Shown here: positions 1-5,853 of the stretch, piece by piece | How positions within the stretch are numbered: position 1 is the first letter of the stretch | Layout of the letters: every line of letters begins with the position of its first letter | DNA from: Candidatus Ornithospirochaeta stercoripullorum | GTDB lineage: Bacteria > Spirochaetota > Spirochaetia > Sphaerochaetales > Sphaerochaetaceae | Direction of reading: 5' to 3' | Assembly: GCA_017694595.1 (NCBI GenBank) | Contig: JADIMT010000052.1 | Coordinates: 1-37,176 of the forward strand | DNA length: 37,176 bases | Notes under the pieces: generated by a model | What the model saw: only the letters and a program-made list of their open reading frames with translations | Database searches by the model: none | Told to the model about the DNA's origin: nothing | Position numbers and translations under genes: made by a program

Positions 1-645
1 TCGGCAGAAGCTATCCTGACTCAGGCAATTACTGGACAAGGAGACACCGCGAATGGCTTGATTCATTGAAATTCGAGGATCGTAAGCTCAATCACGCATA
101 CCAGTCGTATCTGCAGCAGGTAAAGGACCTGGAATCCAAGCTTGCCCTCATGGATGAGGAGATAGAGAACATCGCCGATGAGGAGAGATACAAGGACAAG
201 GTGGACAGGCTCGTATGCTTCAAGGGCATAGATACACAGACTGCTCTCACGCTTGTCGTCGAGATCGGGGGCTTCGAAAGATTCGCAACGGCAGAGCAGT
301 TCGCAAGCTATATTGGGCTTGTCCCTGGAGAGGATTCAAGCGGGCAGAAGAAGCGCATCGGATCGATAACGAAGGAAGGAAACTCAAGGGTACGGCTTGT
401 CCTTACAGAGGCAGCGAAATCCATAAAAAGAAGCAGCCCCTTCGGAAAGTCAAAGCGCATCATAGCCCGGCAGAAGGGACAATCCCCGGATATTGTCGCA
501 TATGCAGACCGCGGCTCGAAACGCATCAGACAGAAGATGGCAAGAATGGGATCAGCATGGCAAGAACAAGAACGTATCTACAACAGCAGGAGCAAGGGAG
601 CTTGCGTGCTTCGTATGGGGAATGATGACAGGCAATATTGCCTGA
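1..645 (+). pseudogene. IS110-family transposase, C-terminal part, frameshifted
   Basis: The reading frame is open from the left edge (frame starting at base 3), so the N-terminal RuvC-like half lies outside the window. The visible part has the WTRRHREWL motif typical of IS110 proteins just before a coiled-coil linker. The C-terminal IS116/IS902 domain follows (FKGIDTQTALTLVVEIG, SYIGLVPGEDSSG). After KMARM the frame is lost. Removing one G from the GGG run at 548-550 restores the expected tail (DQHGKNKN ... ACFVWGMMTGNIA) ending at the TGA at 643-645. Uncorrected, the frame runs on to 674 with nonsense sequence. I therefore call a broken transposase, although a single-base assembly error or programmed slippage could produce the same picture. 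Nearby IS3 and IS21 sequences make decay the likelier explanation. Confidence 0.85.
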
Positions 646-817
646 GGCAGATAGAGGCAAGGGAAAGGACATAAGTGCATGATTCAGCTATCTTCGAATC
701 TTCTATGGGACTGAAATAGATTCCCGATTTTAGACTGAAAGAGCTTTCGGCGAACCATTGACCTGCAGGTAATCAATCCGCGTATATCAGAATGGCCAAG
801 TGCCGATAGAAACTGAG

Positions 818-940: not shown

Positions 941-1280
941 TACACTCCCTTCAAGTAGGACACTAAAACTACTTGAAGGGCGTATTTCTATATTGCAAGG
1001 AAGAGCAAGATTCCTTCACAGGGTAAGTGAACTGCAGTCATAGTAGCCAAGGAAAAGAAAAGATTAGCAGTTGTTCGTGAAGAACTCCTTTTCAATCTCA
1101 TTTTTGAGTTGTAGCAGCCATCGATATAGGAGAAGAGAGCAAGCCTGAGTTCCTCCTTTGTTCTGTAATGCTTCCTGTCTGTCTCTTCCATCTTCAGATA
1201 TTTGAAGAAGCTCTCGCAAACGGAATTGTCGTAAGGGTAGCCTTTGGCGGAGAACGACTGAAGTACGGAGATGCCAGTTC
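938..1280 (-). mobile_element. IS3-family element, right-end fragment with deleted orfB
   Basis: The minus strand encodes the end of an IS3 OrfB integrase: GISVLQSFSAKGYPYDNSV, then CESFFKYLKMEETDRKHYRTKEEL and the SYIDGCYNSK helix. The expected RPHSxxGxxSP stretch is missing. The next recognisable residues are NEIEKEFFTNNC in another frame, ending at the TAA complementary to 1064-1066. A small internal deletion therefore removed the linker and shifted the frame. Beyond the stop the sequence runs to TGATACACTCCC at 938, which fits the TG...CA termini of IS3 ends. The upstream part is lost near 1280, where group II intron sequence begins on the other strand. The fragment is not functional. Confidence 0.75.
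947..980. repeat. 12-bp perfect inverted repeat at the IS3 end
   Basis: CCCTTCAAGTAG at 947-958 and CTACTTGAAGGG at 969-980 are perfect reverse complements around a 10-base spacer. The left arm lies inside the presumed terminal repeat of the IS3 fragment. The pair could be a subterminal transposase site, a transcription-blocking hairpin at the IS end, or the abutted ends of two elements. Confidence 0.7.
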
Positions 1281-1849: not shown

Positions 1850-1919
1850 TGCTATGTTCGGAAAAATGGAGCGGCCAATTCGCCCGAACGGAGTGAGCTG
1901 GCCGCTTAAAACGGAGTGG

Positions 1920-2693
1920 CTACTGAATAATGTCGTTAGGTCTTAAAGAAGGCCCATCCATGGGAATTCTGTAGGACTTCCTTGACAGCCTGTCCAGACA
2001 GGCATTAGCCAGAGTCTGATCAGGAAACAGTTCCGACCATGCTGAGACAGGGAACTGTGAAGTGATAATTGTAGCCTTGTGCTCATACCTGCAGTCGATG
2101 ATGTCCAGAAGCGTCTTGCATGCATCCATACCAAGTCTCATCAAGTCGAAATCATCAAGAACAAGAAGATCGCATTTCGTCATTGTGCGGAAAAGCGTCG
2201 AGGTTTCTTCTGTACCGATGATGCGATTACACTCCCGCTGAAAATCGTTGCATCTTGTGTAGTAGGCAGAGTAGCCTTTCCTGATGGCCGAGACGGCAAG
2301 GGCACACGCAAGATAAGACTTCCCGCATCCTGTCTTGCCGGTAATGATCAGGGAGTACTCCCCGTTCAGCCATTCAGCCTGGGCAAGCTTTTCGATCAGC
2401 GCTGTGTTGAGCAGTCGCTCGGGATCATAGATTTTCTGATCGATTGACGCTCCCGGAAACCTGAGATGGGCCGCTGCGATTGATCTTGAGATCTTCTTTG
2501 ACTGTCTGACATCAACTTCATTTCTGAGGCAATTAAGGAGTCTGTCCTCGAAAGGCTCAAGTGGTGAGTTTGGATCCTCTGTCTGAGCGATGAATGTTTC
2601 CTTGAATGATGGCAGCCTGAGACGTGTAAGCAGGGCTTTGATCTCATCGCGCTTCTCCTGCATGGAGTTTACGATGCTATTTTCACTGTTCAT
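1920..2693 (-). CDS. istB: IS21 helper ATPase IstB
   Basis: IstB is the AAA+ (DnaA/DnaC-like) ATPase that assembles on DNA and activates the IstA transposase. The 257-residue protein has the family length. It has an N-terminal IstB_N helical region (ALLTRLRLPSFKETF), Walker A GKTGCGKS in mid protein and Walker B LLVLDDF, followed by the YRIPMDGPS tail seen in IstB. The start ATG overlaps the istA stop as ATGA, which suggests translational coupling. No truncation or frameshift is visible. Confidence 0.95.
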   Translation of the reverse strand: MNSENSIVNSMQEKRDEIKALLTRLRLPSFKETFIAQTEDPNSPLEPFEDRLLNCLRNEVDVRQSKKISRSIAAAHLRFPGASIDQKIYDPERLLNTALIEKLAQAEWLNGEYSLIITGKTGCGKSYLACALAVSAIRKGYSAYYTRCNDFQRECNRIIGTEETSTLFRTMTKCDLLVLDDFDLMRLGMDACKTLLDIIDCRYEHKATIITSQFPVSAWSELFPDQTLANACLDRLSRKSYRIPMDGPSLRPNDIIQ

Positions 2694-4258
2694 CTGTACT
2701 CCTCCTTGCTCCTGATGTTCTGATGGACAATGCCTGCTCCATCACCAGTTGCCTGTGCAATGGTGGAAGATGCCAGCCTGAGCAGCCTTTTAAACGACGT
2801 GTAGTTTGTGCAGTTCAATTCCAGACACTGTCTGGCGACATCTTCTACAATTGTTCTCGGGACATCCGAGCACATGTGAAGAATGCCTTTACATGAGTTG
2901 TACATAGTTGCTTCGTGCTTTTGAGATCTGAGGATGGCATCGATAAGGCGCTGCATCGTCTCTCCATACTTGTTCAACGCCCAGGTACGATAATAATTCC
3001 CGTCGTGCAATGGAGCGTTGAGCTCCTTGTAATAGCGGTGCTCAGAAGGCATGTGATCATCTTGTGTAATGTAGATGGGGAAGCGGGAGTAAGAACGCTC
3101 GTGGGTACAGATCAGGATGTTATTCGCATCGGCAATCGTGACGGTTCTGAAGTCTGCTTTGAGTATTGCAGGCTTACCGAGCATTCTGCACGGTACTGAA
3201 TAGTAATGGTCATCGAAGGCCAGATGATAATTGTCAGGAACCTTTGTAAAGAAGCGATATTCTACGCGCATGAAGCGTCCCATAGTGAGCGGCTTCATAT
3301 TCGGCCTGTCAAACTTTTCATAGAGTTCTCTGGCTGAATGTTTCGCACCTCTCATAACAGTTTCGTTCAGAGTCTCTGTGAATTCCTTTATTCTTGCGTT
3401 AACCTGTGCCAGAGAAGAAAAGCATCCGCAATTCCTGAGCTTCTCCAGGACATAGGTTTCACAGGTCTGGACTGCCTTCTCAACCGTTGCCTTTCCCCTT
3501 GGTTTGCGAGACGGAGGAGGAAGCACAACTGTGTCGTAGAAAGATTCCAGGTCGCTGAACGCAACGTTCAGGAGGAGCTCGTCTTTCGTATGTTTTGTTA
3601 CTGCTGTTTTAAGATTGTCTGGTACAAAGTAGCGTGATACAGCGCCGTAGAACGCGACCGCATCTGCTACGCCTTCGATGAACGAAGGAAGTTTCTCATC
3701 AGCGAATGCCTCAGCAAAACACAGGCTGCTGAAGCCGACTGTCGAGACAAAAAGACTGACCGGCTTGAGCTCTCCCGTCTCCTGATCAAGCAGGATTGCC
3801 GGTTTGTCTCCTGCCCAGTCGAAGTACGTCTTCTCTCCTGGAATCCTTTCAACTGGCATCCTTGCATTTCTGTGGCCATAATGGTCATCTACATAACGGT
3901 TGTAGTGTTCAACAAACTGTGTGTACTGATACCCGTCAGGGCTAGTCTTCTTGTACTCACTCCACGCCAAGGTCAATGTTGTCTTGTTTTTCGGATCAAT
4001 GATCTTCCGATAGATTGTCTCGAAGTCTGGCAATGGAACGTCCTTTCGTCTTGCCTTCTCAGACGGGTAGAACAACTGCTCTACTTCATCTGGACTCTTC
4101 TTGGATAATTCCTCATAGGTCAGGCCGAGTTTTCTCATCGTCGACAAAGTACGGTTAACCGTGCTTGATCCGATGCCGAACCTGCTCTGGATGTCTTCAT
4201 AGGTGAAGCCATCCCCCTTCATCTTGAGGACACCGATGATGGTTGTGTATTTCTGCAT
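2690..4258 (-). CDS. istA: IS21 transposase IstA
   Basis: IstA is a DDE-type transposase that cuts and joins the element ends. From the chosen start it is 522 residues. An N-terminal helix-turn-helix (FTYEDIQSRFGIGSSTVNRTL) is followed by an rve integrase core with Asp in TYFDWAGD, Asp in FVPDNLKTAV and Glu in GKATVEKAVQ. A beta-barrel-like C-terminal region follows (FFTKVPDNYHLAFDDHYYSVP). I chose the ATG at 4256-4258 because GGAGG lies 5 bases upstream. The frame is open further, to 4321, but those codons overlap the Shine-Dalgarno sequence and look unlike protein. It overlaps istB by 4 bases. Confidence 0.93.
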   Translation of the reverse strand: MQKYTTIIGVLKMKGDGFTYEDIQSRFGIGSSTVNRTLSTMRKLGLTYEELSKKSPDEVEQLFYPSEKARRKDVPLPDFETIYRKIIDPKNKTTLTLAWSEYKKTSPDGYQYTQFVEHYNRYVDDHYGHRNARMPVERIPGEKTYFDWAGDKPAILLDQETGELKPVSLFVSTVGFSSLCFAEAFADEKLPSFIEGVADAVAFYGAVSRYFVPDNLKTAVTKHTKDELLLNVAFSDLESFYDTVVLPPPSRKPRGKATVEKAVQTCETYVLEKLRNCGCFSSLAQVNARIKEFTETLNETVMRGAKHSARELYEKFDRPNMKPLTMGRFMRVEYRFFTKVPDNYHLAFDDHYYSVPCRMLGKPAILKADFRTVTIADANNILICTHERSYSRFPIYITQDDHMPSEHRYYKELNAPLHDGNYYRTWALNKYGETMQRLIDAILRSQKHEATMYNSCKGILHMCSDVPRTIVEDVARQCLELNCTNYTSFKRLLRLASSTIAQATGDGAGIVHQNIRSKEEYR

Positions 4259-4365
4259 ACACGCCTCCATAACTGAAATGCTCCTGGATGCCAGGTACCC
4301 ATGAACTGAAGCTGAAGGCATGATACATGATGAATTGAACGATTGTGATTGGTAAAAGAAAGGGC

Positions 4366-4478
4366 ACTCCGTGCTACCGAAAACATACTCCGGCTAATGC
4401 GAATGCTCCAGATTAAGCGAAAAGGATACTCCGTGGCTTCCGAAAGCGACACTCCGCCGCTAGCGAAAAGTTCACTCC
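4366..4478. repeat. Right-end transposase-binding repeat array of IS21
   Basis: Read from the right tip inward, GGAG(T) recurs six times at intervals of about 23, 23, 23, 18 and 21 bases. Each is followed by a TTTTCG- or TTTCGG-like stretch. The left tip has three related units. Such arrays are the sites bound by IstA (compare TnsB sites of Tn7). Confidence 0.8.
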
Positions 4479-4496
4479 ATTAAGCCGTACATTGCA

Positions 4497-4505
4497 ATTC
4501 GAAAC
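4497..4505 (+). repeat. Right target-site duplication of the IS21 element
   Basis: Copy of ATTCGAAAC, the partner of 1841-1849. Its last five bases, GAAAC, also begin the palindrome upstream of the AAA ATPase gene, so the insertion point lies at the outer edge of that palindrome. Confidence 0.75.
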
Positions 4506-4545
4506 GGACTAATTCTATTTTTATTGTCATTTAGTCCGTTTCAGA
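4501..4545. promoter_or_regulatory. Palindrome upstream of the DUF4143 ATPase
   Basis: GAAACGGACTAA at 4501-4512 is the perfect reverse complement of TTAGTCCGTTTC at 4531-4542, separated by 18 AT-rich bases. The right arm continues as CAGA. A near-copy, TTAGTCCCTTTCAGA, occurs after the gene at 5839-5853. The palindrome lies 15 bases before the start codon. It could be an autoregulatory operator, a hairpin in the 5' leader, or the end of a small mobile cassette. Confidence 0.65.
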
Positions 4546-4559
4546 GCATAATTTAATGT

Positions 4560-5810
4560 ATGCAGAGAGAAGGAAGCCTATATTCACGAGAAAAGTATCT
4601 TAGTGTATTGAGACCATTCTATTCCGACAGGGAACTGATAAAAGTCGTGACTGGTGTACGCCGCTGTGGCAAGTCCTCTCTGCTCGAGCTTGTCAGAAAA
4701 GAAATTCAATCACATGGAGTGGCTGAAGCAAATATTTTGAACATCAATCTCGATCAACGTCCCTATATTGGGGTAAGAAGTCCTGAAGCATTGGAAAGAG
4801 TCATAGACAAAGGTTTTGGAAAAGCAGAAGGGCTCAAGTACCTTTTCATTGATGAGATCCAGAATGTGAATGGCTTTGAAATCCTTATCAATGCCTATAG
4901 GGAAAGTGGAGAGTATTCGATTTTCATCACAGGTAGCAATTCCTATCTTCTCTCCGGTGAGCTGGTGACAAAGCTTACCGGCAGGTATCTGGAGATAGAG
5001 ATGACTACCTTGACCTTTGATGAATATATAGGAATGAAGAGGTTTCTCAATCTGCATGTTGATGAAGATCTTTCGCGTGAGCTCAGGTCCTATATTGTCG
5101 AGGGCGGATTTCCCTATGCACTGAATTTTGAACGCCTCGAAGATAAACGTTTCTATGTGCACAGTGTTATCAACGAGATATTCGACAAAGACGTGAAGTC
5201 CAACCCGAAGATAAGAAAGAAGCATCTGTTCGATCTTATCATGCAGTTTGTCATAAACAATTTCGGTTGCACGATCTCGATAGACAATATAGTCAATCAT
5301 CTGAAGGATGTGCTACATGAGAATGTAAGAAAGGAAACCGTTTACCGATATCTGGAGCAGCTTGAGAATCTCAAGATTGTATCGAAGTGCACTCGCTTTG
5401 ATCTTAAGAGCAAGAGATCATTAAAAGGGGGTGAAAAATACTACTTGTCTGACTTGAGCTTCTACTTTCTGCGCAACACAGACAACCGCATATCATACGG
5501 CCCTGTACTGGAGAACATTGTCTATCAGTATGCTAAAAGCCTTGGCTACAAAGTAAGCATAGGCAGGATAGGTAATTTTGAAGTCGACTTCATCCTGCGA
5601 AACCCATCTCTGTCCTATTCTTATGTCCAGGTTGCCATGTATATCTTAACGGACTCTCCCCAGACTGAGGAGCGTGAATACCGCTCTCTGGAAAGGATAA
5701 GGGACAACTATCCGAAGTATCTGTTGACTCTGGATGCCCTGCAGCAGGAGCGTGGAGGAATTATCCATGCAAATCTGGCAGAATTCATTGCTAATGAAAA
5801 TCGTTTCTAA
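4560..5810 (+). CDS. AAA ATPase with C-terminal DUF4143 domain
   Basis: This is a cytoplasmic ATPase of the AAA_14/DUF4143 family, 416 residues, the usual size. Walker A is GVRRCGKSS (residues 32-40), Walker B YLFIDE (94-99), and a sensor-like FITGSNS is near 122-128. A winged-helix-like middle precedes the DUF4143 region. That region has a PD-(D/E)XK-like pattern: E341, D343 in FEVDF, then YVQVA near 358. The usual catalytic Lys position after Q-V is Ala, so nuclease activity is doubtful. The biological role of this family is not established; anti-phage or selfish-element roles have been suggested on weak grounds. No convincing Shine-Dalgarno sequence precedes the ATG. It stands alone between an IS21 element and debris, with related repeats on both sides. 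Confidence 0.9.
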   Translation: MQREGSLYSREKYLSVLRPFYSDRELIKVVTGVRRCGKSSLLELVRKEIQSHGVAEANILNINLDQRPYIGVRSPEALERVIDKGFGKAEGLKYLFIDEIQNVNGFEILINAYRESGEYSIFITGSNSYLLSGELVTKLTGRYLEIEMTTLTFDEYIGMKRFLNLHVDEDLSRELRSYIVEGGFPYALNFERLEDKRFYVHSVINEIFDKDVKSNPKIRKKHLFDLIMQFVINNFGCTISIDNIVNHLKDVLHENVRKETVYRYLEQLENLKIVSKCTRFDLKSKRSLKGGEKYYLSDLSFYFLRNTDNRISYGPVLENIVYQYAKSLGYKVSIGRIGNFEVDFILRNPSLSYSYVQVAMYILTDSPQTEEREYRSLERIRDNYPKYLLTLDALQQERGGIIHANLAEFIANENRF

Positions 5811-5838
5811 ACCGGCCTTTTTTGTCATCTTTTGCGAC

Positions 5839-5853
5839 TTAGTCCCTTTCAGA
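5839..5853 (+). repeat. Downstream copy of the ATPase-flanking repeat
   Basis: TTAGTCCCTTTCAGA differs by one base from TTAGTCCGTTTCAGA at 4531-4545. A TTGTCAT precedes both copies, directly upstream and 9 bases further away downstream. The two direct copies bracket the ATPase gene. Confidence 0.6.

What the first reader, a model, noticed from the sequence alone, without database searches (positions are those of the whole stretch)
4501..5853. DUF4143 ATPase gene bracketed by copies of a TTAGTCC(G/C)TTTCAGA repeat
A 12-bp perfect palindrome sits just upstream of the gene and a 14/15 match to its right arm lies just downstream. The gene stands alone in a mobile-element region. The repeats could mark a selfish gene cassette, or the upstream palindrome could be an autoregulatory operator with the downstream copy as a relic.
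Basis: partly seen in the sequence, partly recalled or inferred. Interest (0 to 1): 0.6.

Follow-up and report, generated by a model that had tools for sequence, protein, structure and literature searches.

The report
Mobile ATPase gene bracketed by palindromes
A lone bacterial ATPase gene, of a family counted as one of the commonest predicted phage defences, sits between two copies of a DNA palindrome; the palindromes mark the ends of a unit found at different places in different species, and one sister species has a single palindrome where the gene would be, so the gene seems to be a small mobile element.

Summary
The upstream palindrome (4501-4542) is a 42-bp dyad that contains the -35 box; its right half-site lies between -35 and -10. 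The downstream "copy" is the right half of a second, decayed 42-bp palindrome (5809-5850) whose left arm overlaps the stop codon. Ten Spirochaete relatives (68-97% protein identity) carry both palindromes at identical internal spacing. Most of 80 relatives across phyla have an upstream dyad with clade-specific arms; 18 of 80 also have a matching downstream one. Near-identical cassettes (98.5-99%) in four Lachnospiraceae species lie in mostly different flanks; L064 and L070 stop matching at the palindrome's outer edge and at the stop codon. Relatives show filled, solo and empty states: G033 has palindrome-gene-palindrome where G019 (92.5% identical over 10 kb) has one palindrome; G012 is filled where three relatives have neither. 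The protein (AAA+, winged helix, PD-(D/E)XK-like) belongs to PDC-S01, a predicted, unvalidated defence family. Best reading: a single-gene mobile cassette whose terminal palindrome is also its promoter/operator. Mobility is inferred from comparative genomics; the moving enzyme is unknown (the nuclease Lys is absent, no transposase is encoded). I found no paper describing this.

The parts
4501..4542 (.). Upstream palindrome P: GAAACGGACTAA-N18-TTAGTCCGTTTC, 42 bp outer to outer; proposed left end of the cassette and operator
   Evidence: same 42-bp spacing in all Spirochaete copies and solo copies
4524..4529 (+). -35-like box TTGTCA, inside the loop of P
   Evidence: the -10 is usually 5-7 nt before the start codon in the Spirochaete loci
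4547..4552 (+). -10-like box CATAAT, 17-nt spacer holding the right half-site of P; 7 nt before the ATG, so the mRNA is probably leaderless
4560..5810 (+). ATPase gene, 416 aa: AAA_14 (Walker A GVRRCGKS, Walker B LFIDE, conserved R142), winged helix, C-terminal DUF4143 (PD-(D/E)XK-like fold); PADLOC PDC-S01
5808..5810 (+). Stop codon TAA, overlapping the left arm of the downstream palindrome
5809..5850 (.).
1850..4496 (.). IS21-family insertion (istA-like 2690-4321 -, istB-like 1920-2693 -) landed at the outer edge of P; 9-bp target duplication ATTCGAAAC at 1841-1849 and 4497-4505; not part of the cassette
   Evidence: in L007 the sequence is contiguous across this point

Best explanation
A single-gene mobile cassette of about 1.35 kb, palindrome-gene-palindrome. 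The palindrome (two 9-12-bp half-sites 33 bp apart in the Spirochaete clade) is both the end of the unit and, upstream, the promoter/operator of the gene, because its right half-site sits between -35 and -10; downstream, its left arm overlaps the stop codon. The protein is an AAA+ ATPase with a winged helix and a PD-(D/E)XK-like domain. I propose that it binds the half-sites of its own palindrome, represses its promoter when bound, and marks the cassette ends for gain. Loss by recombination between the two direct copies leaves one solo palindrome. Shown here: the paired palindromes, fixed spacing, promoter overlap, precise unit boundaries, cassettes 98.5-99% identical in different species and mostly different flanks, and filled, solo and empty sites in relatives. 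Inferred: protein-palindrome binding, autoregulation, and any role of the protein in moving the unit. Unknown: the enzyme that inserts it.
For: Ten Spirochaete loci with both palindromes; every copy, solos included, has the same 42-bp span while the loop varies. Across 78 loci, 46 upstream regions score >=12 dyad matches against 3 of 71 control regions. Loop identity between the two copies averages 0.70 within a locus and 0.49 between loci. Promoter overlap in most Spirochaete loci. Homology ends at palindrome edge and stop codon in unrelated flanks: L064 vs L070 and L074 (98.5-99%), L016/L019, L025/L030; L070/L074 share both palindromes, -166 to +45. Filled vs solo: G033 vs G019, 92.5% over 10 kb. 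Filled vs empty: G012 vs G016, G008, G023. Solo vs none: G006 vs five relatives. Patchy: 11 of 40 sampled genus genomes have a >=55% orthologue.
Against: Movement is inferred from species-level comparisons, not from strains or experiments. No target-site duplication of the cassette was found. Only 18 of 80 relatives have a downstream palindrome close to the gene, so many homologues may now be immobile or end differently. Some pairs (L043/L075, L037/L040) share sequence beyond the palindrome. No transposase or recombinase is in the unit, and the Lys of PD-(D/E)XK is replaced by Ala in nearly all members. Inside the Spirochaete clade the two arms do not covary beyond shuffles. Solo copies can all be explained by deletion and do not by themselves prove insertion. 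Paralogues at about 33% identity lack strong palindromes.
Confidence: 0.6

Rival explanations
1. Operator only. The palindrome is an autoregulatory operator of an ordinary accessory (defence) gene; the downstream copy is a second operator or a chance duplication. The gene travels passively by homologous recombination or inside islands; solo palindromes are left by deletion between the two copies.
For: Right half-site lies between -35 and -10; an upstream palindrome is far commoner than a downstream one; some cassettes sit at guaA 3' ends or next to tRNA/tmRNA-like 3' ends, classic island sites; deletion between repeats would yield solo copies, as described for PATEs (PMC3119063).
Against: It does not predict homology ending at palindrome edge and stop codon between 98.5-99% identical copies in unrelated flanks, nor a second full palindrome overlapping the stop codon in both Spirochaetes and Firmicutes.
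Confidence: 0.22
2. Mobilised in trans by an IS200/IS605-type Y1 transposase that recognises palindromes near both ends; the ATPase gene is a passenger, as in PATEs.
For: Palindromes at both ends in direct orientation and no visible target duplication resemble IS605/PATE ends; Y1_Tnp matches occur in the sampled Spirochaete genomes.
Against: No Y1 match in G054 (isolate AB2028, which holds a 99% cassette), G057 or G049; the dyad has an 18-24-nt gap rather than a compact hairpin; palindromes are tied to this one gene family across phyla and are not dispersed.
Confidence: 0.1
3. The palindromes act as RNA hairpins (terminators or processing sites).
For: The downstream copy follows the stop codon and could form a stem.
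Against: The upstream copy lies in and before the promoter and would not be transcribed from it; long AT-rich loops; arm covariation no better than shuffles.
Confidence: 0.03

Closest known systems
PDC-S01 phage-defence candidate (PADLOC; COG1373-type AAA_14-DUF4143 ATPases)
   Same: The protein is a clear family member. PMC12988326 describes PDC-S01 as an ATPase fused to a PD-(D/E)XK-superfamily domain, fourth most common defence in prokaryotes, with experimental validation pending for most PDCs.
   Different: The passages read here do not mention bracketing palindromes or a one-gene mobile unit; defence activity is untested.
PATEs and IS605-type transposons of Haloquadratum (PMC3119063)
   Same: Palindromes near both ends, no target duplication, and core deletion between the two copies leaving a terminal-only copy.
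   Different: PATEs are too short to code for a transposase and resemble IS605-type ends; this unit codes for an AAA+/winged-helix/PD-(D/E)XK-like protein and no transposase.
REP palindromes with RAYT (TnpAREP)
   Same: A gene associated with palindromes whose sequence follows that of the gene family.
   Different: REPs usually exceed 100 copies per genome (abstract of PMC2817692); here almost all copies are next to the gene. RAYT is a tyrosine (Y1) transposase, this protein is not.
Archaeal AAA+ ATPases SSO1545 (2FNA) and PABY2304 (2QEN); STAND/NLR ATPases
   Same: Residues 3-307 align at Z 17.5 (AAA+ plus winged helix); CED-4 and plant NLRs follow at Z 15-17.
   Different: The match does not cover the C-terminal domain; nothing is implied about shared function.
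RptR-repressed defence islands (PMC12255303)
   Same: A defence locus repressed by a protein binding palindromes in its own promoter.
   Different: RptR is a separate small repressor; here the proposed repressor is the ATPase itself, untested.

Membership tests
PDC-S01 | Match to a PDC-S01 profile over the whole protein | tested here: met
   PDLC04787, E 1.9e-121, residues 6-413
PDC-S01 | Anti-phage activity | not testable with these tools
   Needs phage challenge; validation pending for most PDCs according to PMC12988326
PD-(D/E)XK nuclease | Fold of the C-terminal domain | tested here: inconclusive
   Foldseek top rows are mostly PD-(D/E)XK proteins (NucS/EndoMS, EcoRV, VRR_NUC, McrC, Card1, Holliday junction resolvase), best E 3e-3
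PD-(D/E)XK nuclease | Catalytic E...D...(D/E)xK set | tested here: not met
   E318, D343 and Q357 are conserved, but the Lys position is Ala in 78 of 81 and Ser in 3
IS200/IS605 or PATE | Palindromes near both ends | tested here: met
IS200/IS605 (autonomous) | Y1 (HUH) transposase coded by the element | tested here: not met
   The element codes only for the ATPase
PATE mobilised in trans | Y1 transposase elsewhere in the carrier genome | tested here: inconclusive
   Y1_Tnp in 15 of 18 genomes searched, none in G054, G057 and G049; completeness of those three not given
REP/RAYT | Many dispersed palindromes per genome | tested here: not met
   2 exact matches in the own genome; 5 in G048, all within 3.4 kb of each other
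DDE-type insertion sequence | DDE transposase gene inside the unit | tested here: not met
   Single ORF with AAA_14 + DUF4143 only
DDE-type insertion sequence | Target-site duplication | tested here: inconclusive
   None seen at the L064, L070 and L074 boundaries; left edge uncertain by a few bases
Integron gene cassette | Movement by an integron integrase at attC | not tested
   No integrase search was run; here the palindrome lies on the 5' side of the gene and carries the promoter

The most novel reading that the evidence does not exclude
A new class of autonomous mobile element: the AAA+/winged-helix/PD-(D/E)XK-like ATPase itself recognises the bracketing palindromes and drives insertion or excision of its own one-gene cassette without a transposase, so that part of what is counted as a very common phage-defence family is a selfish element.
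Probability: 0.27. Interest if true: 0.88.

Novelty: new variant of a known kind. Interest (0 to 1): 0.68.

Why it matters
PDC-S01 is reported as the fourth most common predicted defence system in prokaryotes (PMC12988326) and the most frequent single locus in the rumen (PMC13356809), with no tested function that I could find. If one large branch travels as a palindrome-ended cassette, its abundance and its presence in defence islands could reflect mobility rather than defence. The 42-bp palindrome also gives an immediate biochemical handle: a defined DNA ligand for a protein family that had none in the papers found here.

Tried and rejected
Dispersed solo copies as a REP-like family: rejected, counts are near zero away from the gene. 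RNA hairpin: no covariation beyond shuffles. Chance: rejected. Palindromes in all DUF4143 genes: not seen for own-genome and genus paralogues at about 33% identity with a strict threshold. Empty sites for L074 and L070 within their genus: no clean empty site, only partial flank matches. Palindrome-free site for the G033/G019 locus: neighbours differ in the other genomes checked. Plasmid and phage relatives: best 40% identity, not followed. Foldseek and VIA-align lists for the whole model are filled by the AAA+/winged-helix part, so I predicted the C-terminal domain alone. Literature: DUF4143, COG1373, PF13635/AAA_14 and a phrase search for palindrome-flanked ATPase elements gave nothing relevant; subscription papers and preprints are not held.

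Full report
What is there. The 12-bp palindrome is at 4501-4512/4531-4542 and the ATPase ORF at 4560-5810. Its left arm overlaps the stop codon and has decayed here (AAACCGGCC...GTCCCTTTC); in L006 and L007, 95-97% identical proteins from other Spirochaete MAGs, it is nearly intact. The two 15-mers are the only exact matches in the 2.04-Mb assembly. An IS21-family element (1850-4496) landed on the outer edge of the upstream palindrome; its 9-bp target duplication ATTCGAAAC includes the first five bases of the left arm. In L007 the flanking sequence is contiguous.

The pair is conserved. In L006-L015 (68-97% protein identity) both palindromes are present. All copies, including four solo copies, span exactly 42 bp with 9-bp arms, while the 24-nt middle varies. 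Within a locus the middles are 0.70 identical on average, between loci 0.49. In more distant relatives (54-63% identity; Lachnospiraceae, Erysipelotrichaceae, Coriobacteria and others) the arms change to clade-specific words such as TTAAGGGGG, TTAACGNNGTA or AAACCGAACT. Forty-six of 78 upstream regions score at least 12 on a dyad measure, against 3 of 71 control regions further upstream. A matching downstream palindrome lies close to the gene in 18 of 80; in L029, L070, L072, L073 and L074 it overlaps the stop codon just as in the Spirochaetes. In L031 a second copy lies 2.6 kb downstream, beyond a DUF3644 gene that PADLOC calls PDC-S19. L067 has four palindromes in a row before the gene, and its genome holds only one more perfect copy, nearby.

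Promoter. In most Spirochaete loci a -35-like box lies in the loop of the upstream palindrome, the right half-site fills the 17-18-nt spacer, and the -10 ends 5-7 nt before the start codon, so the transcript is probably leaderless (L013-L015 fit less well, partly because the start positions used there come from the tblastn match). This is how an operator would be placed. Within the clade the two arms do not covary beyond shuffled controls, which speaks for two independently read half-sites rather than a needed stem.

Boundaries. In blastn, homology between Spirochaete loci runs from the outer edge of one palindrome to that of the other, for example L008 2942-4291 against L011 2943-4291. The cleanest case is a cassette 98.5-99% identical in four Lachnospiraceae genomes (L064, L070, L072, L074). 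L064 and L070 part exactly at the left edge of the palindrome (CATAAC|AGGGGG vs GGTT|AGGGGG) and at the stop codon (CTTTTAG|ATCATT vs CTTTTAG|GGGGCAG, where the second palindrome of L070 begins). L070 and L074 share both palindromes plus 33 bp and then differ on both sides; L070 and L072 are partly syntenic. L016/L019 and L025/L030 end at the same points. L043/L075 and L037/L040 are exceptions that share more.

Filled, solo and empty sites. G019 and G033 are 92.5% identical over 10 kb; G033 has palindrome-gene-palindrome where G019 has one palindrome, and the two alignments overlap by about 57 bp there. In G012 the unit lies between two convergent genes that are adjacent, without gene or palindrome, in G016, G008 and G023. 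G006 has a solo palindrome between two convergent genes where five relatives have none. The right flank of L009 has a 90% relative in G047 without palindrome. Eleven of 40 sampled genus genomes carry a >=55% orthologue. These are species-level comparisons: they show gain or loss, not the act of movement.

The protein. PADLOC places it in PDC-S01 (E 1.9e-121). The AlphaFold2 model (pLDDT 88.7, pTM 0.89) has an AAA+ plus winged-helix part like SSO1545 and PABY2304 (Z 17.5 over 269 residues). The C-terminal domain, predicted alone (pLDDT 81.5), finds mostly PD-(D/E)XK nucleases at weak E-values, best 3e-3. Walker A and B and R142 are conserved in 81 sequences; E318 and Q357 are kept and D343 nearly so, but the Lys of the nuclease motif is Ala in 78 and Ser in 3. 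A normal metal-dependent cut is therefore doubtful.

How it most likely works. The palindrome is a paired half-site read by the ATPase's winged helix; binding it shuts the promoter. The same palindrome ends the mobile unit. Gain of the unit yields palindrome-gene-palindrome, or palindrome-gene when the right copy is absent; recombination between the two copies removes the gene and leaves a solo palindrome, as described for PATEs of Haloquadratum (PMC3119063). The paired sites, promoter overlap, boundaries and site states are shown; binding, repression and the moving enzyme are inferred or unknown. A Y1 transposase acting in trans is possible in Spirochaetes but was not found in G054, G057 or G049.

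Known or new. The protein family is known as a defence candidate (PMC12988326, PMC13356809), without tested function. I found no description of its palindromes or of a one-gene mobile unit in the papers searched. In organisation it resembles PATE/IS605 and REP-RAYT systems, but it fails their enzyme criterion, so I file it as a new variant of a known kind and keep 'self-mobilising ATPase element' as the bolder, unproven case.

Noticed in passing
L031:1410-2429: A DUF3644 gene (PADLOC PDC-S19) lies between the ATPase and a second copy of its palindrome; the copy also repeats what looks like the guaA 3' end. Possibly a cassette with cargo at the guaA integration hotspot.
   Followed up: partly
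L067 / L262 (G048:C47): Four palindromes about 160 bp apart precede the gene, a fifth lies near a second AAA_14-DUF4143 gene; no others of this form in the 2.9-Mb genome.
   Followed up: partly
L269 and L273 (G071, G075) vs L070: The left flank of L070 (88-90% identical) holds a different cassette in G071 (65% protein identity, other palindrome) and a gene fragment in G075; the 33 bp left of the palindrome in L070/L072/L074 look like the left half of that other palindrome, as if one cassette had entered another's palindrome.
   Followed up: partly
L037, L043/L057, L051/L066: Cassettes directly after tmRNA-like or tRNA-like 3' ends or at the guaA 3' end; judged by eye, not run through a tRNA finder.
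   Followed up: no
G020:C9 / L103: The cassette of G020 is interrupted after codon ~13 by about 1.4 kb of foreign DNA, related to a fragment found just right of the cassette in L007.
   Followed up: no
own genome, L086-L093: Eight further DUF4143 genes, only one or two of them close to this subfamily, without comparable palindromes.
   Followed up: partly
window 947-980: A second perfect 12-bp inverted repeat (CCCTTCAAGTAG, 10-nt loop).
   Followed up: no
window 66-674: ORF matching the C-terminal part of an IS110-family transposase, below the curated cut-off; probably a remnant.
   Followed up: no
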